64,000 bases of DNA from Myrmaecium sp. VS I D KN 1 (taxonomy: Eukaryota; Ascomycota; Dothideomycetes; Valsariales; Valsariaceae), in contig JADQAV010000022.1 of assembly GCA_019775845.1 (NCBI GenBank), positions 200,830 through 264,829 of the forward strand, given 5' to 3'. The position numbers and the translations under genes were made by a program. The notes beneath the pieces were generated by a model that was not told the origin of the DNA, ran no database searches, and was given only the letters and a program-made list of their open reading frames with translations. Shown piece by piece: positions 538 through 31,347 of this stretch. Within the stretch, counting starts at the first letter, position 1, and every line of letters starts with the position of its first letter.

Positions 538-1022
538 ATGCCTCCGAAGGAGGGTCCCGTCGTCCACATCGACGACAGCGGTGTCGCCATCCACATCACC
601 GCGCCCGGCACTTTCAAGTTTGAAGGGCTCCATCCACCAGCCTCAGCGAGCTGGTATTCACACCATCCAGCACGACCCTAACCTTGCACATTCATCACTC
701 AGTTAACAGCCAGGACATCCACGTCCACGCACTAAGTAAGCCATGAGAAGCACCATCGTCCGTTCTGCACCAAACAAAAGCTAACGAGCAAAAAGCCGCA
801 GTCGACTTCATAATCTTCGTCGGCGTTAACACCGCGCACGAGCCGGCCGTACTCCGCATGGTGAACGGCTGCGCGACGGCGACCTTTGAGATCCCTTTGT
901 TGCAGAGACGTCCCTGGGATCTCCGGACGGAGGATGGCTGCACGATGAAGACGCATCTTGCTAAAACTTGGTGCAAGGTGAAGGCGGGTTTGTTGCGTGC
1001 GTTGGGTGGTTTCTCCGGCTGA
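538..1022 (+). pseudogene. Short member of the local divergent family, with a frame break
   Basis: The ATG at 538 follows a good CGCC context and opens a short N-terminus with the APGTF motif also seen in the 1764 gene. Exon 1 appears to end at 735, followed by a 66-bp intron (736-801) with a GTAAG donor, a CTAAC branch point and a CAG acceptor. Exon 2 (802-1022) encodes a strand (DFIIFVGV), a second strand (ATFEIPLL), an acidic linker and a basic helix. This is the same C-terminal module as in the genes at 3967 and 13319, and the intron is again phase 1. The frame of the first ~30 codons does not join the frame that reaches the intron: one base would have to be gained or two lost around 620-640, and no usable intron fixes this. 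It is either a pseudogene or a sequence error. The product would be about 160 residues. Function unknown. Confidence 0.5.
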
Positions 1023-1763
1023 GGCTGCTTCGCGATGAGATATGATGTGGAGGTTGCAATGCGCAATCTTTCGGGGCGATTGAGGCTGTTTTGCAATGAG
1101 ACATAATGCGGTGGTTGCAATGCTCAACCCTTCAAAGCTGAGTTCTATCTGGGCTCATATCATGTGCTGATGATTTAGCTATCTACAGGACTTCCAATTT
1201 TTCTCCTTACGTCGCTTTCCTTCGTCCTGTTTGCTTCTCCATGAGTTCCCTCATGAAGTCAGCCCGTCCTCTATCATGAAATGTACTTTTACGATGTGGC
1301 CATGGTTACAGCGCGGGTTTGGTATAGACAGATATAGCAGAGAGTGGATGTTGATATGCTGAAATGCGTTGGACTGGTGTTTACCAGGCGTCGAATCGGG
1401 CGGCAAGGAGTTTGAATCCTTTCGCGCTGCTATATCCCACTCTCTCCACAATCCGGGAGCAGGCGTTTGAGACGGTATTACCTATACTAATGACCATGCA
1501 GACGTTAGCTTTCATATGATGTTCCTTCTGTTCAGTGTACAAGATGATATAGCGTAGTAACGTGGTACTCTAGCAGTTCGGTTTGCGTTGTTCTGTAGTA
1601 ACTCGCGCTAGGTCAAGGTTGATCTGGAGAGTTGTTGTTTTTGTTTTTGCCTTCCAGCTTCAAACCTTTACAAGACTGAATTCTTTTGAGGAAATCTCCA
1701 TCTTTCCACCTCTCTACTCAGGTTCTAGCTGCAGATTGTCTTGCCCGTTCTAATTCGGAAACC
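1023..1763. other. Intergenic, no gene seen
   Basis: Only short random open frames. Sequence composition is ordinary and nothing conserved was recognised. The right end (about 1640-1763) is probably the leader of the 1764 gene. Confidence 0.5.
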
Positions 1764-2729
1764 ATGCCACTGGAAGACACTGTCTCACATGGCTTGAAAG
1801 AATCGGGTATGGACGACGGGAACTTCCAGCTCATCCGACCTGGCACCGTCACGATCCGCTGGGGTCCCCTCGGAAACGAATCCGGCGAAAGCGGCAGTAT
1901 CAAACTCGCCCACCCTGGCACCGTTACTATCTGCTGGAGCCCCATTGAAAATGAGGCTGTCGGAAACAGTTCCGCCTCAATGAGAGAAAGAGCGACAGCA
2001 ATGACGCTGCCGCAATTGACAATCAATACTGCTCCAACTCTACCAACCCCAAGCCCTACTGCTGCTGCCACTACCCACAAAGCCCGGACGACTGAAGCAA
2101 TTACTCCAACTCTTGTCAAGACACACCCGGTAATTGAGATAACCACCAAACGTAATGTCCACAATCAAGGGGGCGCGAGCGTGTTGGCTGGTAACGTCGA
2201 CAACCGGACTGTGTCGGGAAGGAAGCGCACCCATAGCGAACGCCGATCGGTAGAACCATCACCACACCCTGAAGAAACGGATGAACCATACATCAAGCAA
2301 GAGATCGACCAGGTCTATGATGATAGCGACGTTGGGTCAAGTCCTGTCCGGCGCAAGACCCTCCCAAGAGCTTGCCGCTCACGCGTACGAGCTACTACGC
2401 AATACGACAGCGAGATGGACTCAATGTATTCGTATTCGGACTGGAATATGGACGACGACACAAGCGATGTCGAGGTTGAGGATCGAGAGACCGAGAGTAC
2501 TGACGACGACGCATATCAGGGCCCAAGCAATGTCGGAAACGAGAGCAGAGAGAACGATGAAGATAGCAACGGATCTATCGAAGAAGATGATATCAGGGAC
2601 AGCCAGGGGACCGGTGACGAAGGTCTAAGTAACTGCAACGACAGCAAAGAAAGTGATGGGTGGAATTTTTTGTATAAACGAAGAGGATATCACTGGGGAA
2701 TGCGAAGCAAGTGGCGGCGGCGGAGGTGA
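1764..2729 (+). CDS. Acidic nuclear-type protein of the local family, two PGTVTI repeats
   Basis: The first in-frame ATG with a sensible context is at 1764 (MPLEDTV), giving about 321 residues. Near the N-terminus are two copies of a short repeat, RPGTVTIRWGP and HPGTVTICWSP, about 25 residues apart. It resembles the APGTF of the 538 gene and HPSAVTVRI of the 3967 gene. The middle is Thr/Pro-rich and disordered, followed by a basic GRKRTHSERRS motif close to QKRTHSQRDS in the 3967 gene, then a long Asp/Glu/Ser-rich tail. The simple reading stops at 2729. Phase-1 splicing from about 2628 to 2684 would instead continue into another open frame up to about 2777, where there is a GTAACT donor. The 3' end is therefore uncertain and the true product may be longer. 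No known domain recognised; a nuclear location is inferred from the basic motif. Confidence 0.55.
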   Translation: MPLEDTVSHGLKESGMDDGNFQLIRPGTVTIRWGPLGNESGESGSIKLAHPGTVTICWSPIENEAVGNSSASMRERATAMTLPQLTINTAPTLPTPSPTAAATTHKARTTEAITPTLVKTHPVIEITTKRNVHNQGGASVLAGNVDNRTVSGRKRTHSERRSVEPSPHPEETDEPYIKQEIDQVYDDSDVGSSPVRRKTLPRACRSRVRATTQYDSEMDSMYSYSDWNMDDDTSDVEVEDRETESTDDDAYQGPSNVGNESRENDEDSNGSIEEDDIRDSQGTGDEGLSNCNDSKESDGWNFLYKRRGYHWGMRSKWRRRR

Positions 2730-3966
2730 TACATTATCGACAAAGGAGAGCAAAAATGATTCTGAAAAGTGTGATAAGTAACTTGCGATCTTTTGGATTT
2801 TCCGTACGCCTAGGCTAACCTGTCACGATGAACATTTGGCAGGACCTCGCTGATATCGGAATCCGCCAATTTCTTCTAAGCCCAACGGGCTTCAGCGCCG
2901 GCATAAAGCCATGCCTTGATTACATCAAGATCGAGATCGAAAGGCAGGACCAGGCGTAATTACTGGGACACTAGAAGCGGTGCCTGAAAGGCGCCAGATC
3001 GTGCTAAAGGATCGAAGAAATTCCATCACAATTCGTATAACTCGAGAGAGTACGTAAAGCGAGCCAAGTCCTTTGCGAAATAGATGTGCCGACTTAATCA
3101 GCTAGCATAGTAGTGAGGTAGCCGGATTACTGGAGCCCAACAAATCAACGACTGGTGTTAATATAATCAAACAGCGCAAGGTTTCCGGTAAACGTGCGGG
3201 TGTCTTATGGTGAACGAATGATGCCAGTGAGCGACCATTATCACTCCATAAGTGAAGTTGGAGCTTCACGAATGGATTCCGAGTTAAGGTGGAAGTTTGA
3301 GGAGGAAGAGTAGAGTACTCACAGATTTGGATTAGGCTGAGGCTAAGTCCCAAAAGATTTGGTACATTGCCTTAAGTAAAACAGGAGTTTACTGGACACT
3401 CAGACGAAGAGAGCTTGAAATGTTTACTAGACAAACATGGCTCCAGGTGTATGTACAGTATGTGTGAGACCAGTGAAATGTTAGAAAAAGATTTAGAGCT
3501 TTCCTCCCGCCGACAACCCCGTAGGATTTATAGACATATTATGATTCGGCAACGCTGGACGAGCCCAAACCTCCAGGAACAAATCTACGGACCGTGATTT
3601 TAGTAAAGCATGGTGGATTTCCCTCCCAGCCCGATACCTATATTACCACGCTCAGTGAGACGACCAAACACCATCAGCAGCAATCTCAGCAGCAATCATC
3701 CTACGTAGGTACACACCATTGCTTTCGCCCTCTGAGCTTGCAAAGCTTCCCTCAGCCAACAATATCGCTTGGCCTCCCTTTTGCCACTCCGCTGAGCAAT
3801 CAGAAGCTGGTCACGATAGACCGGCTCCTTTCACACCGGCACGGCCTTTCGTATGTCCGCAGCTCACCATCTGAAGTCACATCCGTCAGCCTCACATTTT
3901 CTCCCCCAAACCTCTTATCTTGGCCCTTTCCCTTGGACATCTGCGTCGGCGCGTCAAATTGGAGAT
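2730..3966. other. Intergenic with coding-like fragments
   Basis: No complete gene. About 2778-2842 has the form of an intron (GTAACT donor, CTAAC branch point, GGCAG acceptor). Downstream, 2843-2959 reads as DLADIGIRQFLL and onward to a stop, and about 2990-3050 reads through a strand-like NSITIRITRES. These could be lost 3' exons of the 1764 gene or remains of another family copy. The rest, to 3966, shows nothing clear. An in-frame ATG at 3853 could extend the next gene. Confidence 0.35.
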
Positions 3967-5222
3967 ATGCCAGCCCAGACCATCTCCTTCCATCAAGGAC
4001 AGACTGGGCAAAGCGTACACGTATTGATCACCAGCCACCCCAGCGCGGTGACAGTGCGCATCTCACGGTCTTGCGCAGAGGAGGAGGACGCGTTCGATGA
4101 AAGCATTGAGATCGTTGCCGGACCTTCCGGTCTGCAGAGCTCGAAGAAGGTGTCAAATCTGATTACTGCCAAAAGGGAGGAATCCAATAAGCCTGCAGAT
4201 GGACAAAGCGACGCGGTTTCTGTCAAGCAATGCCCGTCGGCGCCGGTCTCACGGGCGAACAGTTCAGCTACCGAGATGGCATCTAATGGACACCGTGAAT
4301 CGCTTGTTGTAGAGATCATAACTGCTGGTGAAGGAACCCCCGGAGGACAGAACAACAGAAAGAGGACAGAGAAAATGAAGTCCGCCAGCGTCCAAAAACT
4401 CAGTACCCAAAAGAGGACGCATAGTCAGCGAGACTCCATGCAGCTATCTTCCACCCCATCTCGCAAGAAGTCCGAGAGCCTCGCAGACCGAGCTCCCAGC
4501 CCAGCAACACAACTGTCAGCCGGTGCCGATCCCTACGAGGTCTACCTCACCCAACTCGGACGTAAGTACATCCATCCTACCCATTAACTCACCAAAAACA
4601 CCACCACCCTAACCCTCCATCTAGGAGATTGGATCGACATCAACGACCTCCCGGGACCGCCAAACATCGACCCGTACCGCGAGTACCGCAACCGGTTCGA
4701 GCAAGCGCACCTCATCGCGCGCAAGCTGGACCAGCGGCCCGGCCTGCCGCTCTCCAAGCACCCCCAAGACTACGGCGACTTCTGGGTCGAAGTGGAGGAG
4801 GCCTATTGCATGTGGGAGAACGAGGATGAATGCATCAAGCCGTTGCGGTTTCGTAAGCATAGTACGCTACGCCCCGCCCCCCTCTGCTCCCACTTCCGTC
4901 AAAAAAAAAAAAAAAAAAGTCCGTCTGATACCTACTGACCCCCTTCCTCCATCCAGGCTGCATCGGCCTCAAGCCCCTCAGCGACTTCCGACTCGCGCTC
5001 TACTTCGGCAGCCACGCGGGGGAGACGTCGATCGTGTTTCTGGTGCCGTTGAAGGAGATCCCGGCGGATTATGGCGAGGATGGGAGGACGGAGAAGGATC
5101 ATAATATGAGGATGTTTGCTCACGTGTTTGGCATGCTGTGGAACGTCTTTCGCAAGGTGGAGACGGAGCCGATTAGGCCGTTTGTGTTGGAGAGGATGGG
5201 GGAGTGGTCGGCGGCTTTGTGA
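3967..5222 (+). CDS. Divergent family protein, best complete member with two phase-1 introns
   Basis: Three exons: 3967-4561, 4625-4852 and 4957-5222, giving 362 residues. Both introns are GT-AG and phase 1; the first has a CTAAC branch point and the second contains a run of 18 A. The N-terminus has the HPSAVTVRI motif. The middle is disordered and basic (QKRTHSQRDS, a possible nuclear signal). After intron 1 comes a folded part starting RDWIDINDLP and including DFWVEVEEAY. After intron 2 comes the module FRLALYFGS, TSIVFLVPL, an acidic loop and a long helix (MRMFAHVFGMLWNVFRK). The DFWVE block matches DFWVD in the 13319 gene. No named domain recognised. An upstream in-frame ATG at 3853 is possible, but 3967 matches the short MP-type N-termini of its two left neighbours. 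Function unknown. Confidence 0.75.
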
Positions 5223-6052
5223 GGAGAGAGGGGGTGGGTGGATGGGTTGGAGAGGACTGTGGGAAGTGGAGGAGTGTGGGTGATCGGGTTATGAGATACA
5301 GATTCATCAGCCAGGTAAAGGAAGCATCGTGAAGACGCCCCAACCCAGGCAGATAAACAAAAAATACAACCTCTCACCTCTCTACAACCCACTGTGGTAA
5401 TGCTGTGCAAAGAATACTACTACCCAGCAAGCTAAACGATAAGAAAGACAAGGGAAGGCAAGAAGATAAGAAATATCAAAAGGAAAAAGGTCTAGGTATA
5501 TCGTCCTCTAAGCCACCGGCTGTGGGACCAAACCAAGATAGCAGCATGTACATCGAGCGTATAGAATGAAAAGATTTGACACAGTCAAAAGGAAACAAAT
5601 TGAGAAAGAAAGAGATAGGAAGTCAAAGCATGCTGAAAGTGGAGGTTCGTTGCCTGGCCATACACACATACCATACCATACTTCTATGAAACTAAACCCC
5701 CCCTCTCCCTCAATAGGCACGCACGCACGCAGTCACACATCCACCCCTCAACCTCCCCTTCCTCTCCTCTCCTCTCCTCTCCTCTCCTCTCCTCTCCCCT
5801 CACCTCACCTCACCGAAAACACAATACAACACAACACAACACAACACAACACAACACAACACAACGCAACATAAATCCAAGCACCCACTCCACTCCATTC
5901 CATTCCACCTACCCGCCAACAAAAGAACCAAAACAAGAAGAGAAAGGTGAAAGCAAAAACGCAAGAAAATCCACCAGGGTATCCTATCCCATTCCCATTC
6001 CCAATCCCATGTCCATCCCAATCCAACCTTCCCACCCCCCACCGCTCAAAGC
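5223..6052. other. Convergent 3' region between two genes
   Basis: Lies between the end of the 3967 gene and the end of the Afi1 gene on the opposite strand. It should hold both 3' untranslated regions. It contains the pentanucleotide repeats listed next, and no coding sequence was recognised. Confidence 0.6.
5759..5866. repeat. Two adjacent 5-bp microsatellites
   Basis: A (TCCTC)n run at about 5759-5800 grades through CACCTCACC into an (AACAC)n run at about 5820-5866. Both have a 5-bp period and are strand-asymmetric: C/T-rich, then A/C-rich on the plus strand. Confidence 0.9.
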
Positions 6053-8700
6053 TCACTTAGCAGGCACCTCCGGCGGCCTCTCCTCCTCCTCCTCTGCATC
6101 CCCATTCCCCCCACCCATAACCCCCATACCCCCCCCAACCCCCATTCCCCCACCAAACAAACCAAGCTCCTCCCTTCTCACACGAAAGAAAGCCAACTTC
6201 GCAAACCTGCCAAGTTGCGCCCAAAAATGCCGTCCCGCATCATGCATCCTTACACGCTCCAGGACCCTCACCGCCGCCCGTCGCACATCGGGCCGGGGAT
6301 GAAACAGTCCCAACCCGAGCGGGAACAGGCCCGCCGACGACTCGCACACCACGCCGAGCAGGTGGAGCAGGGTGTGGTAGCGGCGTTCGCGTTCGCGTTC
6401 CTCCCTGTCGGCGTCAGCCTCGGCGTGTGCCTCGGCGGCACCTTCGACGACGCGCTCCAGCCCCAAATACACCGCCGCCGCGCCCTCGCTGCCGGGGCGC
6501 AGCAAGCGGAGGCGATCCAAGGCGGAGCCCAGATCGACCCCCCTCAGGCCTTCCGGGCGGCGCACCCACCGCATCGCCTCGTCCTGGACGTAATTGTAGT
6601 AGCTGCGGGTGTTGCGCCAGCCCTCGATGCGGTACACGTTCGCGGCCAGCTCGCGGGTCTTGCTCGCGTCGTCCGGCCAGACGAGGCCGTGGCCGAGTTG
6701 GCGGGCCAGGTCGGCGGAGCCGGGGGAAGGCGAAGAAGAAGAAGGGTTGGTTTCGGTGAAGGGGTACAGGGCGCTGGCGCCGAAGACGAGTTCTTCGAAG
6801 GCCGCGGCGATGCGGGTGAAGCGGTGGACCCAGGCGCGGAGGAGGCGTCGGATGGCGGGCTCGCCGTGCCGGGAGGCGATGGCGTGGGTGAGGGTTTGGA
6901 TGAAGGCGGTGTCGCCGGTCGGGTCGTCGGCGGGGGAGGGCGGGCCCGAGGATTTGGAGGAGGAGTTGGTGAGGGCGTTGAGGCTGGTGGGGAAGCCGGA
7001 GGAGGACGAGGAGGAAAAGGGCCCGGCGGTGCCGGAGGAGGTGCTGAAGGGGTTGTGTGTCGAGCTGCCGGCCGAGGTGTTCGGCGGGTGGCCCGTTTGT
7101 TGCTGCTGGAAGAAGAGCAGCCCTTCCGTGATCGGCGCGCCTTCGATGCGGTTGGAGATCTTCATGCGCCCGGACGGGAGGTCGACGAGCAGGTCCCACC
7201 ATTCGGGCTTGTGGCCGAAGGCCGGGTTGGTGACGCCGGCGATGAACCCGGGGACCTTGAGGAGGTCGTCGATCTTGGTGAGGTCGGTGTAGGGGAAGGC
7301 GTGGCGGGTGAAGCCGCGGAGGAGGCCGCCGGATGCGAGGGCGCAGGCCGCCAGGACCGCTTCGGCGACTTCGGAGGAGGGCCGGTTGTGCCCGAGGAAG
7401 ATGATGCGTTTCTGGGTGAGCAGGGCGTTCATGAGCACGATGATCGGATGAGTGTAGGGCCCGCTGGTGGTGAGGTGGGGGTGGAGCGGACTGAACGGTT
7501 GCGGCGAGGTGGCGTGTGGTGTGGAGAACGTCTGGATGAGCTTGATGAGGGAGAAGTCGCCGACGGTTTCGGTTGAGACGGCAGTGGGGACTTTGATGGG
7601 CACGGGGATGCCGTTGTACATGACACGCGATTCGAACTCGTGGGTATCGCGGGGCAGGGCGTAGCGCGGACGCGTGGACTGGGTCGAGGAGGTGGATCCT
7701 GGCAGGGAGTGCTTCTCGGCGTCTTCAGCCATGCGTTGCTGGATCATCTGGTCGAACTTTTCGATGAACATGTCCTTGACTTCCGTGGACTGCAGGATAT
7801 GACGCTCAAGAGGTGTGAGCTTCGGCATCAGGGAAAGGTCCATGGAATTGAGCGCGTTGTAGAGCGACGCGAGGGTTTCCGGTACTGGTGCACGGTAGTA
7901 CTCTTCCAGAGCGAGCAGTAGCAGCGGCTGTGCGGTGTGAGTACATACGCCTTATGGGTCAGTATTTTGTGAGGGTTCGGTACCTTGTAGATGTGCAGGA
8001 ATGAATGCCGCGTGCAGATGGCCATGGCTTTGACCACCGCACCACGCTTGACCGTGTGATCCTGCTTCGTGAAGACCAGATTCAAGACGTACACGAGCGG
8101 CGGCCCCTCGATATCCTCCTCGTCCGAATCGCTCTCCCCGTCCTCATCATCCAGGTCGGAATCATCCCCGCTGTCCAGGCCCGTTCCACCAGCCAGACGT
8201 TCCTCCCTTCGTTGTTTCCGCCTCCGTTTCCGCTCCGCCCTTTCCTCCTTTTCCTCCTCCTCGGCGGTGGTGTCCTTGTGCAGGAAGAAGATGGTCCAGT
8301 CCTGGCTGCGCAAATGGGTTTGGTCCGGCAGCATGAGCTCGGCCAGCATGTGCTCGTCCCCGCTGATGGGGCCGGGGTACTGGTGTTCCATGATCGAGCC
8401 GCGATCGATGTCGAAGGAGGCGACGAGGATGTATTCCACATGGTTCTCCGGCGAGTTGGCGGGGTATTGCGACTTGAGCTTCCGGCGCTGGGGTGGTCTG
8501 GGCGCGGAGATGGAGGACTGATGCGAGTTGCGGTGCGAGGAGGCGGAGGAGTCGGCGGACTCGCGCACGGCGGTGGGATTGGGTGATCGGCTCGGTCGTC
8601 GACCCAGGGCGGAGGGAGAGCGCGAGGTGGGAAAGGAGGAGAGGGAGGGTCGGCGGCCGACCGCGGCGTTGGGGAAGGAGAAGGAAGGATTGGCAGACAT
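6053..8700 (-). CDS. AFI1: Afi1-like Arf3 docking / polarity protein
   Basis: Two exons on the minus strand: 7984-8700 and 6053-7927. The 56-bp intron is GTACC to CACAG, and the product is 863 residues, close to yeast Afi1. The N-terminus is Ser/Arg-rich. From about residue 85 it carries the Afi1 docking domain: [13 protein letters not shown], then [11 protein letters not shown] and DWTIFFLHK, followed by a basic then acidic insert. The spliced joint gives [16 protein letters not shown] and leads into the SPA (stabilization of polarity axis, DENN-like) region, with [21 protein letters not shown] and KRIIFLGHN. Yeast Afi1 recruits the GTPase Arf3 to polarised cortical sites, and this protein is expected to act the same way in tip growth. 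The long Ser/Pro-rich linker around residues 480-560 and the Gly-rich C-terminus are low complexity. An in-frame ATG at 8730 is an alternative start. Confidence 0.9.
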
Positions 8701-9472
8701 GTCGGGGTTACGCGCAACGGCCACGGCCATCACAGATGTGCGGAGCTGCGGGACGGTGCGGTGGACGGGAGAGTCGAGCGTTCAGGAGGGGCGGGATGCC
8801 CTGACGGCGGGAGAGCGGAGCGGGTGGAGAGGTCCGAAGGGGTCGTCCGGGGGCTGTCGTCGTAATCAAACCGATAGCGGAGATGGCGGAGTGGAGCCGC
8901 GACAGACTGGCAGAGTGGCTAGAGAGGGTTGGGTTGCCAGATGCCAATAGTTGGGAAAATCATTGGAGACGGAGTGGATTGAAACATACAATAATAGGGG
9001 AGCACGCACTGCGGTCAGGGCCATGCATTGATGCCTTGGTCCCTGGCACATTCAAGGGCTGGCTGCCTGAGCAGCTGCATGTCTCACCGCCCTCCACAAA
9101 TCGCATGGCTGAATGCCTGAGGTGTTCACCCCCGCCAAGCATTACCCCGGACTTAACGTGGATATGGCAACCCGGCCGCTAGTTTGTTTGTCAACACCCG
9201 ACAACCTAAGGCCATCCGTCGTCCACACGTCCACCCGTCCAACCACTGCAGCCGCACATCACCATTCACGCGCCAACCTTACGTGTATACACCGTTCTTT
9301 CCACCCGATCACCTTACCCGGCCTGACTGATAAGACACACACACACAACGCACACCATCGGTGCGACTGGTTCATCATCATCAAACCTTAACTGTGTGAG
9401 CGCAGAATCACTGTCGTCTGCCTGCCAGCCCGTCCGGCCGATAAAAGATTGCAGGACGCCCCCAAGTTCACC
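8701..9472. promoter_or_regulatory. Shared upstream region of Afi1 and the EF-hand gene
   Basis: About 770 bp between two divergently transcribed genes, so it must contain both promoters. No clear TATA box or known operator was seen. A short CA run occurs at about 9331-9345. Confidence 0.5.
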
Positions 9473-10983
9473 ATGGTACGTCTTTCCCGCCTGTTTTCTC
9501 CGTCATGATGATGACTGACGTAGAGATAAACATCATCCAGGCCACCCCGCCGCAGCTGCACCACCGGCCCTCCGTGCGCGCCTCCCCCTTCCGCCGCGCA
9601 GGAGCATCTCCCCTCGCGCCTTCTCCCTCGCAGATCCGCCGTGAGCAATCCCCTCTGGCCTCGCCCCTCAAGCCTCCTGCTGCCAGTGCATCCTCGCGTC
9701 CTGCCACCCCGACCGGATTGTCGCCCGAGAAGCCTAACAAGTTCCTTGACTCGCCGCTGCGACCGACCAACCCCAACCCCAGCAACCTCGGCCTGACCGG
9801 TGCCGCCAATCCTCCCTCCTGGCTGAACAGCAGACGAGACAGCCGTGCGGACACTCCAACCACGCCGACACGGGGCCTGCCGCCTACGCCCACACGCGGA
9901 AGCACATCGCCAACTCTCACCCGGGACGCGCTCCCCTCGCCAACCCGCGAACAGCCCTCCTCGCCCAGCCGCCAGCCCTCCACCGTCTCGACATCGACCG
10001 ACGCCTCTGCGCCCGGTGAACACACTCCGGCCGCCACCCCGCCGCCAGAGGAGGAGCCCACACCCGCCGCGCCCGCCTCTCCTGCTCCCGCCGCCGCTCC
10101 CGCCGAGCCCGCCAGCCAACCACGCACGCCCTCCTTCCTCCGCGAGAGCACGCCCAACGCCAGTTCGACAACGCCATCCTTCCTCCGCGACGCAACCAAC
10201 GCTCTCCGACCCACTACGCCCGCCCACACCCGCAAAACCACTCCCCAGCCCAGCACGCCCAACTACCTCAGCGCGCTCAAACCCACCCCAGCCACCAATA
10301 ACACCAACACCACCATGGCACCCCCCTCAACACGCCGCACGCCCACCCCCGGCACCGCCGCCGCAACCCCCCGCACCTCCTTCCCCCCCACCTCCTCCAC
10401 CTCCTCCGACCCCCTCGCCCGCCTCCCCCCCGCCCTCCTCCACTCCCTCCGCGAATCCTTCTCCGTCCTCGACAGCCGGGCCAGCGGCACGCTCACGCCC
10501 ACCCAGCTCGCCGAGGCCCTGCACACCATCGGCCTGGACTCCTCCCCCGTGGCCGTGGCCACATACTTCCCCCCCGGCGCGCCCGCGGAAATGACGCTCA
10601 GCGCATACCTCGCGCAGCTGGCGGAGCCGCTGGCCCGGATGTCGGAGGCGGAGGAGCTGCTGGCGGCGTTCGGCGCGCTGGACGTGGAGGACTGGGGGTA
10701 TGTGGATTGTGAGGTGCTGCGGGGGGTGGTGCTTGCTGATGATGATGATGAGGATGGGGGGCAGGGGGGAAGGAGGTTGACGCGTAGGGAGGTGGAGGAG
10801 GTGATGGGGGGGTTTGTGGGGAGGAAGGTACTGCCGGTGCCAGGGAGGGGGAAGGGGGGGGTTGCGCCGGGGAAGGGACTGGGGGCGAGGGATGTTTTTC
10901 GGTATCGCGAGTTTGTTGGGGTGGTTAGTGGGGCTGGTGGCTCTGGGGGAGGTGAGGGGGAGGAGGGGGAGGGGAGGGTGTAG
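9473..10983 (+). CDS. EF-hand-fold protein with long disordered N-terminus
   Basis: Coding exon 1 is only the ATG (9473-9475, context CACCATGG). Intron 9476-9540 has a GTACGT donor and CATCCAG acceptor, and exon 2 begins GCCACC, giving MATPPQLHH and 481 residues. About 300 residues are Pro/Ser/Thr-rich with many TPTRG and SPTRE-type motifs (possible proline-directed phosphorylation sites) and a repeated PSFLRE/PSFLRD. From about residue 299 a calmodulin or myosin light-chain-like region follows (LRESFSVLDSRASGTLTPTQL, then LLAAFGALDVEDWGYVDCEVL). Both loops lack the acidic residue at position 12, so calcium binding is doubtful. The C-terminus is Gly/Glu-rich. Exact family and role are not known to me; a cytoskeletal adaptor is a guess. 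Confidence 0.75.
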
Positions 10984-10994
10984 GGTTCTTTTTT

Positions 10995-11020
10995 GGGGGG
11001 GGGGGGGGGGGGGGGGNNGG
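10995..11020. repeat. Poly-G run with two ambiguous bases
   Basis: A G homopolymer just after the EF-hand gene includes two N at 11017-11018. Its true length is unresolved in this assembly. Confidence 0.9.
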
Positions 11021-12037
11021 ATTGGGGAGTGTGAGGTTTTTTGTGTTTGGCTTTGTTTTCTTTCTTTCTTTCTTCTTGATGAGATTTATTGAACCGGTGG
11101 GTGATGAGGACTGGGAATGATCATGCGGATGGGAATACTGATGCTGCTGCTGATGACCCGAAGAAATGGGATGGGTTTAGGATCTCTTTACTCCGTTTCC
11201 TCGGTCTTGTTTTTTCTTGCTTGCTTTTAGGCTTTCGGGAAGTAACTAGGATCATACACTGTACTGTACAGTACTTAAGGTACTTCATGATTATTACCGT
11301 GATTTCTCGTTCTTTATGTTTTTTGTTCTTCCCCACTTGCAGGTGGGGGACGGGGTGGGATGAGCGGGTTGGGTTACTATGGATGGCTGGATGGATGTGC
11401 TTCCTAAAGCTACTACAGTGCAGTGTGATTCAGTTATACGATACTGTACGGAATATGAGTTGGAGCTCATTTGTGGTATTGAAGCTACAGTAGGTGGGAT
11501 TTATCCTCCTTCCCTATCCTCTTTTATCCTCCCCCTGCCCCTGCTCTAACTAGATGTACATCTCCACCGCTGGATAGGAGGACTGTATACCTTCGTCTAC
11601 AGGACTATACCCTCGGTATATAGTACAGTGTAATATAATGCCATCTGGGCTTCAGGTCCAGATCCATCCGTGGCTGTTCGTTTGTATTTTCCGTAGGTGG
11701 ACAGGTAGCAGCTCGTCCTCTATTATCCTTCGTCGACTGCGCCAAGGATCTTTACCGCTGGCTAGGTGCCTGAAAGCCTGGAACGATCTCTCATACAGGT
11801 TTTTCCCTTCCTTCCTTGTATCTTTCTATCTTCCTCTCTTTCCCAACTGCTTGATTTGGATCCGTTTGGTCTGCAGGGTAGTATATAATAGTACCCTGTT
11901 CCCTTTTTCGTTCTTCTCCTCCTTCCCCATTTATTTTTCCTTCTCTTTTCATTCTGTCTTTCGCTCTTTTCTAGAGCAGGCGGATCATCTGCTCGCTTTG
12001 CCCGGCGTATAGTGGTGTTTCTTTCTCTCATAACAGT

Positions 12038-12110
12038 ATCGTACATCGTACATCGTACATCATATCGTACATCGTACATCGTACATCATATCGTACATCG
12101 TACATCATAC
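12038..12110. repeat. Nested 7-bp / 26-bp tandem repeat
   Basis: The unit TCGTACA occurs in blocks of two or three separated by TCATA, giving a higher-order period of about 26 bp. The core GTAC is palindromic. Confidence 0.9.
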
Positions 12111-13318
12111 AAAACCGCAAACAAGGACGATGACGTGCCGGGGTATGAACTCGTGCTCACGACCATACACCCTCCGTTCAATTCTTTGTGGGCAGCTTAG
12201 CGCCGGACGGGGTTGTTTGGTTGTATGAAGAAGGGCGGTGCGTGGACTGGATCCCGATGAGACGGGAGAAGAATTGTAGATTACGGGGTGGTGGATGATT
12301 TCGACTTCATGTGAGATTCTTGGTTCGGGATTGGTTTTGAGGACTGCTTTGTGAGGGTTGTTCGGATCCATATATCTCCGTGATGCTTTTTTTTATCCGT
12401 CCTTCTTCAGGATGTGAGAGGGTTTATAACTTCTTCTTCCACCTCGTTTCTTCTTCCTTTCTTTTTTAATCCGTTGCCTTCGGGTCGATGTCATCCATCC
12501 ACAGTCCGATCTTGATTTCCAGCGTGAGTCCGGCTTTTGGTTGGGCTTTTTTTTGCCCTTCGTCGTTTTTTGCTGGTTCTATGAGGATTGTCCATGACAA
12601 AACCGGAGTTTTGTACTTCCAATCGGTCACTCGGCTGTGAGCATCCTGTAGCGGGCAGCGGCTCGTGTTTGTTATGTCCCGATTTCTGCTTTGTTAGTTT
12701 GGATATGTTTTTGAGGCATCCAGAAGGTGGTGAATGGTGGTGTAATTCACACCTTTCTTTGTGCGTCCGTGAAGCATAAGAAGGACATAGTAGCCGGCCG
12801 TGTGGTAGTAGAGTAGCGGTTCAGAGAGGATGTCCCTTTTTTCTGCTCCTGTCTTTCTCCCGATTCTCTGCTCCTCCTAACCGTGGGATGCTTCTTGTAT
12901 CATGTGTGTTTAGAAGGGTGCTATATGCACACTTCTCTTCTGCCATCTGCTTGAGGGCCTTTTTCTTCCCTTTTTGATGCCATGAAGCTTTCATGGGAGG
13001 TTCCTCGGACGTTTCTTGCGGATGAGTGGATGCGCAAAGCAGACGATGCTCTTCTTTCTTTCCTGGTGCTTGCTCTCAACTTCACCGCTTGAGTCTTCGA
13101 CGGCTGCTTGAGAGAAGAGCTATCCACGACGCCTCTGCCGGGAGCATGCCACGGTGCTTTCCCGTTGGAAGCGGGCCATCATCTTCACCGTTCTTGTGTC
13201 TGTCACCGTCATGGCTCGGTCCAAGCCTCTCCTCTCTCCATGTATACCGCTATTTTGAAGAAGACTCCCCCCCACTCCAGCAAACCACCACCACCAACAA
13301 CCAACCCACCCAACACGC

Positions 13319-14588
13319 TCACCCCCGCTCCGGCGGCGGCTTCCGAACAAGGCTCTGCAGCACGCCCACCATCCTCGCAAAGTTCACCGCGTTATAAGCG
13401 CCATCGCTGGCGTCCTGAAGCCGCAAGTACCGGGGATCCGGCCGCTGCATGTCCAAAACGAAATCATACCGGACGCCATGTTCACCAGCATCGACACCGG
13501 TAAACGTGTCGCCAGGCTCCCGAAGCCGGATGGAGGCGAAGATCTGAGCGTCGCCCTCGACGGCTTTCCATAACGCTTGGGCTGGGGAAGGTGTTAGTTT
13601 TGTCTGTTATACCTAGAAGTTGAGATGGGAGAGAGCGGGGGGACGTACGCCGTGGATTCGCACTCAACGGATCGATGAGATGGCTGACGCTCCGCCGGTC
13701 CTCGCCGTCGACCCAGAAGTCGACGGTGTTGAAGAAGGGCCAGACCATGAGCCGGCCGTGTTCGACCTCGCCGGATTCTGGGTCGCGGGTGGCGACCCGC
13801 AGCGCGCAGTTTCCTCTTCCTCCTGATGGGGGTACCGTCAGCGCGGTGATGTTTCTCCATTCGCGGTTCTCTGTGGGCAGGCGGGGTTAGTTGCTGGCTT
13901 GGTGGGAGCAGTGGGGGATGGAGGGTTGGTAGGTACCTCTTGCGGTGTTGTCTTGTAGAGACTCGAGTTGGATGGTTTCTGGTTCTTCCGTTCTCATTTT
14001 CTTTGTGACTACAAGCGCTTTGGCTTGGTCTTCTTCGTCTTTATCAAGGTCCGCAGAGTCGCGTGACCGCTTTCTGTTGTTAGATGGGCTTGCTTCGACC
14101 CTTGGAGGGCTGGACTGGATGTGCTCAGTTGCTTCGGTGGCCGCTGTGGGTGCAGTCTCACGGTTGTCGACGGTTGGGGATCTCTGGGTACTGTTATGCT
14201 TGGTCCTCATGTGCTTGTCGAGGCCTGACTGATAACGGTAACGACTGTTGCAATGTTTGCAGCTGTGCTGCTTGCGCTTGCATGACGTCGCTGCTGTTTT
14301 GTTTCCTTTCTGCTTAGTATAATGCTGCTCATTTGGCTGTGCTGAAGTCGTTGCTTCGGGCCCGGTGATAGCCTCCGTGGAGGTCTTTGCTTTCTTTGAA
14401 GCTACTTCTGCGTTATGTTCGACTGACTCGTCGAGCTCTTCGTGAGACCGCTTGCGCGATTTGACTGCACCCTCATTGAAGGTTAAAGTGCGGTTGCGTA
14501 GTTGTCTTTTCTGGACAATGGTGTTTGAAGCACTGTTGTCGTGCTTGTTTGCCTTGCTACCGGTGCTTCTCAAGTTGCGGGAAGACAT
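13319..14588 (-). CDS. C2H2 zinc-finger protein with the family C-terminal module
   Basis: Three exons on the minus strand: 13937-14588, 13649-13870 and 13319-13581, giving 378 residues. Both introns (66 and 67 bp) are GT-AG and phase 1. Start chosen at 14588 (MSSRNLRSTG, context CCAAGATG); an upstream in-frame ATG at 14714 looks like leader. Exon 1 is basic and disordered with SRKRSHEELDES and NRKRSRDSADL, and has one C2H2 finger (CKHCNSRYRY... HMRTKH, spacing C-x2-C-x12-H-x4-H). After intron 1 comes REWRNITALTV and NTVDFWVDGED. After intron 2 come the strand AQIFASIRL, the strand VRYDFVLDM, an acidic loop and a helix (YNAVNFARMVGVLQSLVRK). This is the architecture of the 3967 gene with matching introns. 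It is probably nuclear and may bind DNA or RNA through the finger; the target is unknown. Confidence 0.75.
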
Positions 14589-14953
14589 CTTGGTTGCTTG
14601 TGACTTACGTCGGTATAGCGAAGTGAAGGAAGGTTGGGAAGTCGGATTGAAAAGGTTGGTATAGAAGCTGAATGCTTGAGATGTGGAAATATGAACGACA
14701 GAGTGAGTGCTCAATGAATTTTCGGTGGAGAAGAGAAGAGAAGAAAAGTAGACTTGGGAATGTCAAAAGTTCTGTTGATGCTTTGCTGCTCGCTGTGATT
14801 ATCTTAGCCAAGCACGGCTGGCAAACGCCTTGACAACGCAGACACGTGCGTACGAGTCTTCATTCGAGTCTTCACTCACTTACCTTCACTTCTAAAATTA
14901 TCCTGCTTTCCTTCCTTACTCCCTCATCTCTATTGCTACTCAGGTAAATCACA
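14589..14953. promoter_or_regulatory. Divergent promoter of two family genes
   Basis: 365 bp separate the start codons of the 13319 (minus) and 14954 (plus) genes, so both are expected to use this stretch. A near-direct repeat CGAGTCTTCATT / CGAGTCTTCACT occurs at about 14854-14878. Just before the plus-strand ATG is a CTACTCAG sequence, also seen upstream of the 1764 gene. Confidence 0.5.
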
Positions 14954-16383
14954 ATGGGTTGGGAACTTGAGACCGACAGTAGCCAGCCTGAACTGGATAA
15001 TGACGGAGATGTCACCGTCGCTACTGAGTTGAAATCACAACATCTCGTCACTGCTGCTCGGGTTGAGGCGTCCTTGCCCAAGATTGATGATTCCTTTCAA
15101 CCCTCTTCTCCTGTATCAGAAGAGAAAGCTGTCAGCTATCAGGACGGTGAGAAACACTTCGTTAGTGACAGCGTCTCGTCCCCAACCAGTCACGTCGATA
15201 TGACCACTGTCACCACCCACGAATGCTTTCATAACAACGCAGCACTGGGAGGACGTCAAGACTCAAAGAGCTCAAACGTCTCCCAGTCAATTACCAAACA
15301 CAACACAGCGCAACAAACAGCAATGTTCAAGACCAACAAGCCGTCTCGTTCCAGCCACCGGGGAGAGGTCGCATTGAAGGAAGACCGTGTCAGCTCAACA
15401 TCGTCGACGGCTTCAACCAAGCCTTCTGGGCGTCAACCCCCTGCGACTAGGAAGAGGACTTTGTATCGTCGAAAAGTATCCACGAAAATCGCTTCTCACT
15501 CTCCCTTGAGTCCGCCTAGATACAACATGAACAATAGGAAGAGAACGAGTGACGCCTGCTCTTCGCTATCTCTGGAAGAGAAGGCTGACCGAAGGAAGCC
15601 CAAGGTACAGCAGGACACTAATGTCGCTCCCAAGTCGCCAGAAGACAAACATAGTTCTTCCTCACCAGAGACACCGTATCGTCCTCCAACCCTTATCGAA
15701 CCAGTACCGAACCTCGTACTGCCAGTTCCCGCTTTCAGGGTTCCATACCGTCGTCTGTTCAAGACCCAGCCGGTGCTTTATCCCGGCACGTCGGCCACTC
15801 GTGTGGACGCAGTCACACGCAGAAGTCTGGACCCTCGTCTTCAGTTAATGAAGGTGGACCCGATTCCAGAGTTTTCAGATCAGCAATGGCTTCCCATCGC
15901 AGCTATCCTCGATGAGCCCGAGATCTCTTGGCTTGATATGGATGATGACCAAAGATTCGAGTTTTCCGACGTTCTTTGGGTTGAGAAGCAACTCCTCGGG
16001 AAGCTGATCCTCGACCATAACCCTTGGAAAGAGAAACGCAGCTTCTTGATCCACGAATATGGTCCTAACAGGAAGATCGCCCTTACGCTGACAGAATACG
16101 GTGGGCAAAGTCGAGACATACAGCCGTGAAAGACTATAACTAACTTTGAATAACAGACATCACTTGGATGAAACGGAGCACGGCGGAGAGAGCCGAGATC
16201 CTTGTTCATTTCGGCCACGTTATTCGGAACCCATGTCTGCAGAACACGTTCCGCATCAGAATCCCTCAACCCGCTGGACCTGCAGAGTTCAGAATCTGGG
16301 ATGACATGTTGGCCACCATGGCTCGCGTCCAGCAAATGTACAAGGAAAAATCGTTGGAAAAGCAGGGCTCAGGCTACATGTGA
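14954..16383 (+). CDS. Divergent family protein, two exons
   Basis: Exons 14954-16100 and 16157-16383, 457 residues. The 56-bp intron starts GTGGGC, ends AACAG and is phase 1, at the same place as the last intron of the other family members. The N-terminal ~190 residues are disordered (Ser/Thr/Lys). A basic block NRKRTSDACSS and a Pro-rich stretch (RPPTLIEPVPNLVLPVPAF) follow. The folded part begins QQWLPIAAILDEP, includes FSDVLWVEKQL (compare DFWVE in the 3967 gene) and IHEYGPNRKIALTLTEY. After the splice come DITWMKRSTAERAEILVHFG, NTFRIRIPQP and the helix WDDMLATMARVQQMYKEK. It lacks the upstream phase-1 intron found in its relatives. Shares a promoter region with the 13319 gene. No known domain; function unknown. 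Confidence 0.75.
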
Positions 16384-17187
16384 ATGGTGCGAGATACTGG
16401 ATGCCATTGAAACACTCATGGAGGAAGGTACATAGCCGCTTTGCGTCGAAGGGCTCCTGAAAAATGCGTTTATCAGTAAACGAAATTTGAATGTAGTGCT
16501 GCGACCTTCAGTCGCGGTTTCCACCTGAGGTTGGTCTCAATACCAATCATGGGCACACTTTCATAATGAGTTGATGTATGTTTTCTGATATTCTCGCATC
16601 CCTTCATAAGCGTAGCGTCGGTATGGCGGCAGCTTCAGATATCACAGTCATGTCCAGCGCAGAAAACGCTGCTTCCCACTGTCTCATTGTTTTAATACTC
16701 CGAAAATCGCCGGTTGCTTGGTGAATAAGCCCTAGATGCATTGCGTGGCTTGTAAGCCGTAAGCTCTATGCAAATTGAAGTAAAGGATGTTAATAGGGTC
16801 CATACATTCAAACATGCAGAATCTACCATGAGCAGCAGACACCCAAACGCTCATATGAGAGCTGTTACTAAAAATTGGCTTATTATTCCTAGGTTCTATG
16901 ACGCGATGTTTCCACAATGTGTCTTGGATGATGAAATCTCGCACATGTTTATTGACTTGATCTATAATCCAGTGACTACCCTACATTTGGAGTGAAACGG
17001 ATTGTCATCTGTAGTACATGAAAGGGAGCTTGCTGTCGTTCAAAGCTCTTTGAAAACTCCGTCTCTCTCTTATCAATCTTCCGCCATCCCCTTTAAACGT
17101 ATAGCCCTCAACTGGGTATAATGACAGACCACATATCTCCGTCCAAAGTCTATACCTTCGTACGCGTTACGCTGAGTAGGGTCAAGC
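16384..17187. other. Convergent intergenic region
   Basis: Lies between the 3' ends of the 14954 (plus) and 17188 (minus) genes. More AT-rich than its surroundings. No coding sequence or repeat recognised. Confidence 0.5.
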
Positions 17188-17943
17188 TCACACCCTCGGA
17201 TCGCGGCTTACATAGCCGAGCAGTCGTTTCTTGAAACCACAGAAGGCATCACAGGCCACGTCATTAACATGAGCCATCAGGATCGGCGAGAATAAGTCGA
17301 CCGTTGGAGACGAAGCTGCAGGGGAGATAATGATCTTCGAAAACCCCCTTGTCAGCTGCGCCATCCCAGCAGCCGGCCGTGCTCGAATTGAGACTGCCTT
17401 GGCTTTCTTCCTGCGCCGTTCTTCCGTCGGCTCCGCTTCCGTGTCGGAATCCTCGGCGTCCAAGGCGTCGAAGACCCGCTTGCGAGCTTGGGCGGCTACG
17501 GTCTTGAGGTAGAGGCGGCGGGGATCACGGCTTGAGATGGTGCGTTTGGTGGACAGCTTGCGCTGAGCGTAAGGCACTGGGGCCTTGATAACGCGTTGAA
17601 GCGTGTAGCTGTCTCCGTCGGTAGTAGTTGCGGATGACTCTGCTCCTGACAAGCCGCCGTTGACTTTGAAGCCTGGGAAAGGGCTGGCGACATTGCTGGC
17701 AAGCCCACGAGGGTGGAGGAATAGCAGATCGGTTGCAGGCAAGAGAGGCTTGCCAGGACCAGCGATGGACTGAGATCCGTTTGAAATGGTGATGTGCTTA
17801 AGACCGTGGATTACTTCATCGGTCATCGCATCTAGGCCACGGTCAACGTTGCCAAGATCGTCTGTCATCTTGTAGCGGATGTTGTGAGAGACGTGCTGAG
17901 CGTCAGAGTGTCCCATAGACTTCGACGAAGTTGTGGTAGACAT
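17188..17943 (-). CDS. Probable family protein, intronless short member
   Basis: A single 251-residue frame with an ATG at 17943 (MSTTTSSKSMG). N-terminal part has KHITISNGSQ, then a disordered centre. A basic segment STKRTISSRDPRR resembles the KR(T/S)xSxR motif of neighbours, followed by an acidic patch (DAEDSDTEAEPTEE) and RRRKKAKA. The C-terminus gives a strand GFSKIIISP, a second strand TVDLFSPIL and a helix (DVACDAFCGFKKRLLGYV). This order matches the module at the ends of the 3967, 13319, 14954 and 18489 genes, without the intron. Membership is inferred from layout, not from strong identity. Probably nuclear. No known domain. Confidence 0.6.
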   Translation of the reverse strand: MSTTTSSKSMGHSDAQHVSHNIRYKMTDDLGNVDRGLDAMTDEVIHGLKHITISNGSQSIAGPGKPLLPATDLLFLHPRGLASNVASPFPGFKVNGGLSGAESSATTTDGDSYTLQRVIKAPVPYAQRKLSTKRTISSRDPRRLYLKTVAAQARKRVFDALDAEDSDTEAEPTEERRRKKAKAVSIRARPAAGMAQLTRGFSKIIISPAASSPTVDLFSPILMAHVNDVACDAFCGFKKRLLGYVSRDPRV

Positions 17944-18488
17944 GGTGTGAAAAGTAAGGTATACAGCTTTTGCTGGAATAACGGATGAAGGTTGGCGATC
18001 TAGTGTTGTCTAAGTTTGTAAAGCGGCTTTATCTTGCGAGAGAGAGAGATTTGAGGGAAGTAGTCAAGATCGTCTGGAGGGAAGAGTGAGGTGAGGAGGG
18101 CTGCAGGAAAGTCGTGGCTCTTTAAATACGTAGCAACGCGAAGCAAAAGTCACGTTTCGAAACAACCGTGACATGAGGACAATAGCAAACGCGGGAGATC
18201 AAGGCAAAGGCCGGATTAACCCATTGGCCAGAATCAGCTATTGTGAGAGATAATACGTAAATTATAACACTTGCTACTGCTTCAAGCAAAGAATTTTCTG
18301 AATTTGGACCAGAAGGGATGAAAAGGCATCCAATATTCGTAGAGTCACATAGTTGAATCTACCTAGGCACAACGCAGAAGGAGACAGCGTGCGTGCTATG
18401 GAAGGTGCCTCATTAGTTACGTCAACAGCTCCAAACGAGCTACACCAATTCTCGTGGAAGATCCAGTCACTTCCTTCATCACATGGGC
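17944..18488. other. Intergenic, promoter side of the 17188 gene
   Basis: About 545 bp. It should contain the promoter of the 17188 gene and the 3' UTR of the 18489 gene. A short GAGA run lies near 18040. Nothing else recognised. Confidence 0.45.
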
Positions 18489-19401
18489 TCACATATGCCA
18501 GATGAGATCAGGAACCTCCAAAATCTCCACCGCATGCGCCAATGAAAACCCATACGAAGCTGACGCACGGTACTCCGCGTACGCGAGGCCCTTCAGAAAC
18601 TCCTTCCAAACGGCTGTGTTGTGCACCACAAGCTCGTCACGACGCTGGGGGAACGTGTCCGGGAAGTCCTGCAGGATGCGTGCGCGGAAGGTGGACGTCT
18701 GCGCGGGGAAGCCGTCCTTGACACGGATCAGGATGTAGGCTTCCTTGAAGGTAAACTCCTGTTTCCACATGACAACTTCAGCCGCGGGTTGGTAAGTTAA
18801 TCTCTCAGAACGACGCTGTGTTGACGTGACAGGGGGGGAGGCTGGGGGACTTACTGCATTGATCGAGGTAGTAAGTGTGCATAAGGTAATGGACCGTTCC
18901 ATTGACCGAGTTCAGACGGAGAGTGTCGGACATGAAGCTCTCAAGATGCAGAACGTCCTTGAGTTCTAGGATGCCCTCTTTGGGTTCGTGAGCAGCACCG
19001 AGACAGGAGGCGATCGACCACCATGGCAGATTATTGGAACCTGCAGATATACGTTAGTAACTGTTGATCGTAGTCCGGCCAAGGGATGTGTTACCAGCGG
19101 GAAATGGGGGAGCCGGTTCGTCCATCAACGCGAACGGCAGCTCAAGGTCCGCCAGCTCGTCTTTAGTGAAGTTTGCATTGAAATGCTCTGCGAAAGTCTC
19201 AAGGCCTTTAACAACGGCCGACTGTTGAGAGTCCGGAGGACTCGAGAGGTTGTACTCGGTTTCGACAGAAGTCACGGGCGTTTCGGCTTCAACAGGAAAA
19301 GTTTCGAACTGCGTGTGGATATCACCAAAGTTGTCGATATCGAGATCGAGTGGGTCTTGACCTCCAAAAATGCCATCAGTCGGCTGGTCGTAGTTCGCCA
19401 T
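18489..19401 (-). CDS. Divergent family protein, acidic N-terminus, three exons
   Basis: Exons 19095-19401, 18855-19040 and 18489-18775 on the minus strand, 259 residues. Both introns (54 and 79 bp) are GT-AG and phase 1. Start MANYDQPTDG at 19401. Unlike its relatives the N-terminus is acidic (DPLDLDIDNFGD) and lacks a clear basic motif. After intron 1 comes NNLPWWSIASCLG and a helix-rich region ending YLMHTYYLDQC. After intron 2 come MWKQEFTFKEAYILIRV, STFRARILQDFP, a charged loop, and a helix NTAVWKEFLKGLAYAEY. Both intron positions and phases correspond to those in the 3967 and 13319 genes. It is therefore a family member with a replaced N-terminal region. Function unknown. Confidence 0.7.
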
Positions 19402-25846: not shown

Positions 25847-26190
25847 AGGGACGGGGGAGGGAGCATAGAGGAAGCAACAGCAGCAGCGGCAACAGCAGCA
25901 GGGAACACGGGTGATGTCGAGGGCTCGAGGAGTGGAAGCGCTGTTACATTATTTCGGTTTCCCCGTTCAGAAATTCTCATTTCTTCTTTCCGCCAAGGCA
26001 TTGGAGGGAGATGGTGTTTGGGTTAGGGGCTTATTTCTATCGAGGAATCATTGGCGATTTGGTACGATTGTGGTTCTCTATTCGAGGGATTTGCATGACG
26101 TTCTTGTTAGTCGATATATATATATAGTAGATATCTATTCGAAGTTATAGTACATAGTAGATGAATCGCAGAGATTACTATATATTTCTA

Positions 26191-31015: not shown

Positions 31016-31036
31016 ATGCAGAGATTTGTTTTATAA
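31016..31036 (+). promoter_or_regulatory. Possible short upstream ORF in DUF2457 leader
   Basis: ATG in a GCC context followed by five codons and a TAA, about 310 bp before the main start. It can act only if the transcript begins upstream of it, which the sequence alone cannot show. Confidence 0.25.
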
Positions 31037-31347
31037 CAATACTGTCCTTAGGGACAACCACGATCCTTCCGCCTTCAGCTATCGCCGTCGCCGCCAGACC
31101 GTCGCCGTGAAGGGACGGTCTGCTCCTTGGAACATTCGTCTAGTAATTGCGACAGACCTCTGCACGTTGTGTCCGTTCAATTCTTGTCCTACGGCTCCAG
31201 GACCGCTTGTGTTGTAACAGCGACATTGTTCATCGGAATCATCCATCGATCATCGAATGCGTTCATCTTTTTCCGCAGCCATACTCTGAAGACCGCAAGT
31301 CTACATTTGCAGGGACGAGACCCGGGGTCTCGCAACAAACCGACACC

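What the first reader, a model, noticed from the sequence alone, without database searches (positions are those of the whole stretch)
538..19401. Cluster of very divergent paralogs sharing a strand-strand-helix module and phase-1 introns
Seven genes within 19 kb look unrelated by overall sequence. Five of them (538, 3967, 13319, 14954, 18489) have their last intron in phase 1, a few residues before a beta strand. A second strand, an acidic loop and a long amphipathic helix follow. Three (3967, 13319, 18489) also share a phase-1 intron just before a Trp-containing segment, and DFWVE/DFWVD/VLWVE recurs in three. Two more (1764, 17188) fit by their RKR(T/S)-like basic motif; 1764 also shares the PGTVTI-type N-terminal motif, and 17188 the module without the intron. 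N-terminal halves are disordered and differ greatly, including a zinc finger in one. This looks like a local, fast-diversifying nuclear protein family of unknown function.
Basis: partly seen in the sequence, partly recalled or inferred. Interest (0 to 1): 0.8.

Follow-up and report, generated by a model that had tools for sequence, protein, structure and literature searches.

The report
Cluster of very divergent fungal paralogs
Five neighbouring genes in a fungal genome look like strongly diverged copies of one another that keep a small strand-strand-helix end module and an intron pattern; the module matched no known family in the libraries searched, and its job is unknown.

Summary
The core observation holds for five of seven genes. 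In 538, 3967, 13319, 14954 and 18489 the last exons resemble each other: summed similarity 403 against 300 +/- 20 for sets of ordinary proteins, reached by 0 of 2000. Left out singly, four of five stand out; 13319 is linked only through 3967. The best-scoring model of each of eight introns is phase 1. AlphaFold2 gives hairpin plus helix for two members at low confidence (pLDDT 57 and 53). 17188 is not supported (345 of 600 random windows do as well). 1764 shares only a basic motif. In 538 the N-terminal motif cannot be joined to the rest by a canonical intron. No Pfam, PDB-sequence or Foldseek match identifies the domain. Nuclear function is inferred from basic motifs (NNRKR in three proteins) and one zinc finger. 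'Fast-diversifying' could not be tested: no fungal relatives were reachable. Best reading: a local family of nuclear adaptor or regulator proteins of unknown age.

The parts
538..657 (+). A (538): possible first exon with the PGTF motif; not joinable to the rest of A by a canonical intron
   Evidence: Coding-like (0.172, 0 of 181 null stretches); the best joining candidate is a 29-nt 'intron'
624..735 (+). A: penultimate exon, strand-rich
   Evidence: Open frame; donor GTAAGC at 736, phase 1
802..1022 (+). A: last exon, strand-strand-helix module
   Evidence: Left-out score reached by 0 of 600 real-protein windows and 0 of 1598 window ORF windows
1764..2729 (+). F (1764): disordered single-exon ORF with PGTVTI-like repeats and KRTHS motif; weak member
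   Evidence: KRTHS shared with B; N-terminal alignment with B p 0.09 and 0.08; C-terminal 90 residues reached by 573 of 600 random windows
3967..4561 (+). B (3967) exon 1, disordered, NNRKR motif
   Evidence: NNRKR shared by B, C, D
4625..4852 (+). B exon 2, Trp segment and DFWVE
   Evidence: phase-1 introns 4562-4624 and 4853-4956; DNA repeat with C
4957..5222 (+). B exon 3, module (stop codon ends at 5222)
   Evidence: model strands 2-7, 11-16, 25-30 and helices 43-68, 72-86, pLDDT 53
13319..13581 (-). C (13319) last exon, module
   Evidence: Related to B (4 of 478 and 0 of 485 windows); does not stand out against the whole set
13649..13870 (-). C exon 2, Trp segment and DFWVD
   Evidence: inverted DNA repeat 4773-4799 / 13699-13725
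13937..14588 (-). C exon 1, disordered, NNRKR, one C2H2 finger
14954..16100 (+). D (14954) exon 1, disordered, NNRKR, Trp segment
16157..16383 (+). D last exon, module
   Evidence: Weak donor GTGGGC; left-out 0 of 600 real windows, 0 of 1550 ORF windows
19095..19401 (-). E (18489) exon 1, acidic, no basic motif
18855..19040 (-). E exon 2, Trp segment
18489..18775 (-). E last exon, module
   Evidence: Left-out 0 of 600 real windows, 0 of 1184 ORF windows; model hairpin plus helix, pLDDT 57
17188..17943 (-). G (17188): basic-motif ORF; module NOT supported
   Evidence: 345 of 600 random real-protein windows reach its score

Best explanation
The genes at 538, 3967, 13319, 14954 and 18489 descend from one ancestral gene by local duplication and inversion. 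The family keeps a C-terminal beta-rich domain that ends in a hairpin plus amphipathic helix and is interrupted by phase-1 introns, while the N-terminal halves are disordered and dissimilar. Inferred mechanism: the proteins are intracellular and mostly nuclear. The N-terminal half carries the import signal (NNRKR-type basic motifs in three members), a zinc finger in one and an acidic stretch in another. The C-terminal domain is a protein-protein docking or dimerising unit, so that paralogs bring different N-terminal outputs to a common partner. SHOWN here: last-exon similarity of the set, intron phases of the best models, shared basic motif. INFERRED: common descent of the five, nuclear location, docking function, regulatory role.
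For: Sum of ten last-exon alignments 403, null 300.1 +/- 20.1, 0 of 2000 sets of E. coli protein windows. Four of ten last-exon pairs stand out: E-D, E-A, C-B, B-A. Shuffles that keep the hydrophobic pattern do not reach the summed last-exon score (0 of 600). A, B, D and E each beat every window of other ORFs in this window (0 of 1598, 1276, 1550 and 1184). Six introns of B, C and E are phase 1; at a Fusarium rate of 172 of 534 introns (PMC5677156, passages seen) six of six is about 0.001. B and C share an inverted DNA repeat at DFWVE/DFWVD, and coding DNA over the domain scores 206, reached by 0 of 300 codon shuffles. NNRKR in B, C and D: 8 of 3000 plain and 5 of 3000 block shuffles give any 5-mer in three proteins. 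Two predicted modules have the same order of elements.
Against: phmmer finds no significant cross-match: best E 0.22 (C against exon 1 of B), and for a module 4.4 (E against D's last exon). Six of ten last-exon pairs do not stand out; two of these, B-D and A-D, are borderline at 3-6%. With alignments anchored at the intron, B (21 of 600 real windows, 99 of 600 shuffles) and C (40 and 112) do not stand out, only A, D and E do. Over the whole domain the signal is weaker (16 of 2000), and C never stands out against the set (65 of 600, 173 of 600, 163 of 1297). B-C DNA only narrowly exceeds other coding DNA of the window (206 against maxima 197 and 184). Models have low confidence, and their alignments share two rows. 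Two other genes lie between members. E has no basic motif. Nothing directly shows nuclear location or docking.
Confidence: 0.45

Rival explanations
1. Unrelated orphan genes: disordered, basic fungal proteins whose C-terminal exons happen to have a strand-strand-helix pattern, picked out by eye from many.
Against: 0 of 2000 real-protein sets reach the summed last-exon score; pattern-preserving shuffles fail too (0 of 600); B and C share a DNA repeat and both intron phases.
Confidence: 0.18
2. A decaying tandem array: old duplicates under relaxed selection, some already pseudogenes, with no present family function.
For: A's first piece cannot be joined to the rest; F lacks the module; coding scores are modest; coding GC of A-G (0.52-0.58) is below that of 10 of the 11 other genes listed, H apart.
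Against: B, C, D and E are open over two or three exons; the A-E exons lie in the upper tenth of 181 null stretches for coding score; RIP indices are not raised (composite index negative in every row).
Confidence: 0.2
3. Domesticated mobile-element genes.
For: Proteins without Pfam match, scattered orientation, a zinc finger in one.
Against: Repeats of 22 bases or more in 1-21500 are few, short or simple; no transposase or retroelement match in Pfam for the proteins scanned.
Confidence: 0.07
4. Secreted effectors or self-recognition proteins under conflict.
For: Strong divergence of neighbouring genes; lineage-specific genes cluster with HET-domain genes in Neurospora (PMC10684091, search listing and start of abstract only).
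Against: No hydrophobic N-terminal segment in B, C, D or E (12-residue maxima 1.24, -0.57, 0.12, 0.25); basic import-like motifs in B, C and D; no HET domain in the Pfam scans of these proteins.
Confidence: 0.1

Closest known systems
Lineage-specific gene clusters of filamentous ascomycetes, e.g. Neurospora (PMC10684091, search listing and start of abstract only)
   Same: Neighbouring genes without a recognised family in the libraries searched
   Different: Here the genes resemble each other and share an intron pattern; no HET domain found in the proteins scanned; restriction to a lineage was not tested
PH-like beta-sandwich domains (a resemblance recalled by me: strands followed by a C-terminal helix with a Trp)
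   Same: Several strands by eye and one C-terminal amphipathic helix with a W or F
   Different: No Pfam PH match in five domains, although the PH model finds a PH gene in this same window; no Foldseek match for the modelled part
C2H2 zinc-finger regulators
   Same: C and the neighbour H (19761) each have one C-x2-C-x12-H-x4-H finger by my reading
   Different: Single finger, below Pfam's cut-off in C and without Pfam match in H; none seen in B, D or E

Membership tests
One local paralogous family (A-E) | Last-exon similarity above real-protein background | tested here: met
   0 of 2000 sets; C only through B; B and C not when anchored at the intron
One local paralogous family (A-E) | Shared intron phase | tested here: met
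   Best models all phase 1; candidates in other phases exist for C intron 2, D, E intron 2 and A; no transcript data
One local paralogous family (A-E) | Same fold | tested here: inconclusive
   Hairpin plus helix in E and B, pLDDT 57 and 53; A, C, D not modelled as targets
Membership of 17188 (G) | Module similarity | tested here: not met
   345 of 600 random windows reach it
Membership of 1764 (F) | Module similarity or N-terminal similarity | tested here: inconclusive
   No module (573 of 600); KRTHS shared with B; N-terminal p 0.09 and 0.08
PH-like domain | PH profile match | tested here: not met
   No match listed at E up to 10 for five domains (HMMER's filters drop most weak matches); the model works in this window
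PH-like domain | Seven strands plus helix in a confident structure | not tested
   Whole spliced domains were not folded; only contiguous last exons were submitted
Fast-diversifying (positive selection) | dN/dS above 1 or rapid turnover between species | not testable with these tools
   No fungal genome held; viral and bacterial/archaeal scans gave no relative
Nuclear proteins | Nuclear localisation | not testable with these tools
   Only basic motifs and one finger

The most novel reading that the evidence does not exclude
A fungus-specific nuclear domain family, absent from Pfam, whose neighbouring paralogs diversify so fast that they lose sequence similarity while intron phases and fold persist, as would fit an intracellular conflict or recognition system.
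Probability: 0.12. Interest if true: 0.65.

Novelty: new member of a known kind. Interest (0 to 1): 0.42.

Why it matters
Genes that look like unrelated orphans may be diverged copies of one another; shared intron phases and end modules can hint at this where sequence searches fail. If the domain is real it gives a family to trace in related fungi and a way to ask why its members differ so much.

Tried and rejected
Whole-genome search: none held for this window. Relatives: alignments A2 and A3 in viral contigs gave none (64 and 47 pattern matches, none confirmed), A3 in genome contigs none (65, none confirmed). One piece of a flanking gene (Afi1-like) also gave none in viral contigs, so that collection can say little about fungal genes. 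Pfam: only matches far below the curated cut-offs, the lowest E-values being zf-C2H2 0.024 in C and QueH 0.056 and 0.031 in B. PDB sequence searches: weak matches only (best E 0.029 to an uncharacterised protein, next 0.06 to a ribosome production factor; none). Foldseek of both models: no match at E 0.001 or better. The first real-protein group null (53, 37 and 66 of 600 reach the observed sum) could draw overlapping windows of one protein, which I take to explain its very wide spread; it was replaced, which draws five different proteins. Four of eight rows used wrong frame coordinates and were redone. RIP as cause of divergence: indices not raised (there the Afi1-like gene still bears a wrong working label, and two genes were given with lengths not divisible by three, so I use no GC3 value). 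DNA similarity of A-B, A-C, B-E and D-E: not above other coding DNA of the window, though A-B was reached by only 7 of 300 codon shuffles. Exon-1 DNA of B and C: not above it (33 of 89). N-terminal protein halves: 5 of 28 pairs below p 0.05 on plain shuffles, but only B-C (0.01 and 0.0025) on block shuffles too. Literature: six searches listed no paper that I recognised as describing this family; only passages of PMC5677156 were seen.
Full report
WHAT IS THERE. I read the window as fungal from its short GT-AG introns and flanking genes; no genome is held for it. Between 538 and 19401 lie seven candidate genes, which I call A (538), F (1764), B (3967), C (13319, minus), D (14954), G (17188, minus) and E (18489, minus). 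Two other genes lie between members: an Afi1-like gene (6053-8733; Pfam Afi1 and SPA matches) and a gene with a weak EF-hand match, E 8.7e-05 but below Pfam's cut-off.

GENE MODELS. B, C and E have two introns each, all phase 1 in the best models. I enumerated all GT-AG introns of 45-130 bases compatible with the frames on both sides. Phase 1 are 4 of 4 and 3 of 3 for B, 1 of 1 and 4 of 5 for C, 3 of 4 for D, 1 of 1 and 2 of 6 for E, and 3 of 5 for A; the best-scoring candidate is phase 1 in each case (four of eight rows were misframed and redone). D's donor is weak (GTGGGC). With a phase-1 share of 172 of 534 introns in Fusarium verticillioides (PMC5677156, passages), six of six in B, C and E has a probability of about 0.001. 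The first piece of A, with the PGTF motif, cannot be joined by a canonical intron to the rest, although it is coding-like. A may be broken, wrongly assembled or start elsewhere.

IS THE MODULE SHARED? Using the last exons, four of ten pairs among A-E stand out against windows of 82 E. coli ORF-derived proteins from 98 kb: E-D (0 of 579, 2 of 431), E-A (2 of 605, 3 of 431), C-B (4 of 478, 0 of 485), B-A (5 of 605, 6 of 478). Six pairs do not; of these B-D and A-D are borderline at 3-6%. The summed score is 403 against a null of 300.1 +/- 20.1, reached by 0 of 2000 sets of windows from five different proteins; the best four pairs together are reached by 3 of 2000. Shuffles that keep each sequence's hydrophobic pattern do not reach the sum (0 of 600), so the pattern alone is not enough. 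Left out singly against the other four by local alignment, A, B, D and E are reached by 0 of 600 real windows and at most 3 of 600 shuffles, C by 65 and 173. Against 1184-1598 windows of other ORFs of this window, A, B, D and E are unmatched and C is reached by 163 of 1297.

RESULTS AGAINST. If alignments are anchored at the intron, A, D and E still stand out, but B (21 of 600 real windows, 99 of 600 shuffles) and C (40 and 112) do not. Over the whole domain the sum is reached by 16 of 2000 sets and by 2 of 600 pattern-preserving shuffles. phmmer finds no significant cross-match; the best is C against exon 1 of B, E 0.22, and for the module E against D's last exon, E 4.4. An earlier group null was reached by 53, 37 and 66 of 600; it could draw overlapping windows of one protein, and I replaced it.

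B AND C. An inverted DNA repeat of 27 bases, 85% alike, spans DFWVE/DFWVD. Coding DNA of the domain scores 206, reached by 0 of 300 codon shuffles, but only narrowly above the best other coding DNA of the window (maxima 197 and 184; 0 of 110 and 0 of 109 reach it). In that DNA alignment the first introns lie about two codons apart and the second about four (my reading). Protein alignments place the second intron less consistently, so positional identity of that intron is open. Exon-1 DNA is not alike (33 of 89).

THE OTHER TWO GENES. G does no better than random real windows (345 of 600). The C-terminal 90 residues of F do not resemble the module (573 of 600), but F shares KRTHS with B and has PGTVTI-like strands near its start, as B has HPSAVTV; its N-terminal similarity to B is p 0.09 and 0.08. 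Across seven proteins (B, C, D, E, F, G, H; A left out) eight 5-mers are shared by two or more, against a mean of 1.93 in plain and 2.12 in block shuffles (4 and 13 of 3000 reach eight), and NNRKR occurs in B, C and D (8 and 5 of 3000 give any 5-mer in three proteins).

FOLD. AlphaFold2 on E's last exon with five rows gives strands 11-20 and 25-34, helix 43-74 and a further strand 82-86, pLDDT 57, pTM 0.45. On B's with two rows it gives strands 2-7, 11-16 and 25-30 and helices 43-68 and 72-86, pLDDT 53, pTM 0.37. Foldseek finds nothing at E 0.001 or better (174 and 176 matches at E up to 10). By eye the full domain looks like several strands followed by a helix with a W or F, which recalls PH-like folds; the profile test failed, while the same Pfam library finds a PH domain in another gene of this window. 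I do not file it there.

FUNCTION. A composition scale suggests long disordered N-terminal halves, and there is no hydrophobic N-terminus in B, C, D or E. B, C and D carry NNRKR motifs; C has one C2H2 finger; E is acidic (net -24) with an acidic-hydrophobic start and no such motif. I infer intracellular, mostly nuclear proteins that share a docking domain and differ in their N-terminal outputs. None of this was shown.

LIMITS. No fungal relatives were reachable: two scans for the family in viral contigs and one in bacterial and archaeal genomes found none, and one piece of a flanking gene was not found in viral contigs either, so absence there means little. Lineage restriction, speed of change, age, expression and splicing are untested. 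RIP indices are not raised. Six literature searches listed nothing that I recognised as this family.

VERDICT. Five of seven genes are probably divergent paralogs; one is weak and one unsupported. It is an uncharacterised family; its function and speed of change remain open.

Noticed in passing
Similarity to the N-terminal half of C is not significant (p 0.21 and 0.13), and its C-terminal 90 residues do not resemble the module (213 of 600).
   Followed up: partly
window 10990-11020: Long G run with two undetermined bases (N), perhaps an assembly gap, just behind the gene with the weak EF-hand match.
   Followed up: no
window 2686-3054 (+): Behind F, open pieces in another frame (one ends RNSITIRITREST) resemble the PGTVTI strands by eye; the piece scored (2686-2760) is not clearly coding (0.105 of null stretches do as well).
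   Followed up: partly
window 5760-5875 and 12038-12122: Simple tandem repeats (CTCCT and ACAAC units; ATCGTACATC-like units).
   Followed up: no
window 31321-33708 (+): Large acidic protein with a strong DUF2457 match (E 2.4e-140).
   Followed up: no
window 25766-31320: About 5.5 kb in which no segment reached the printed score of the coding-potential scan.
   Followed up: no
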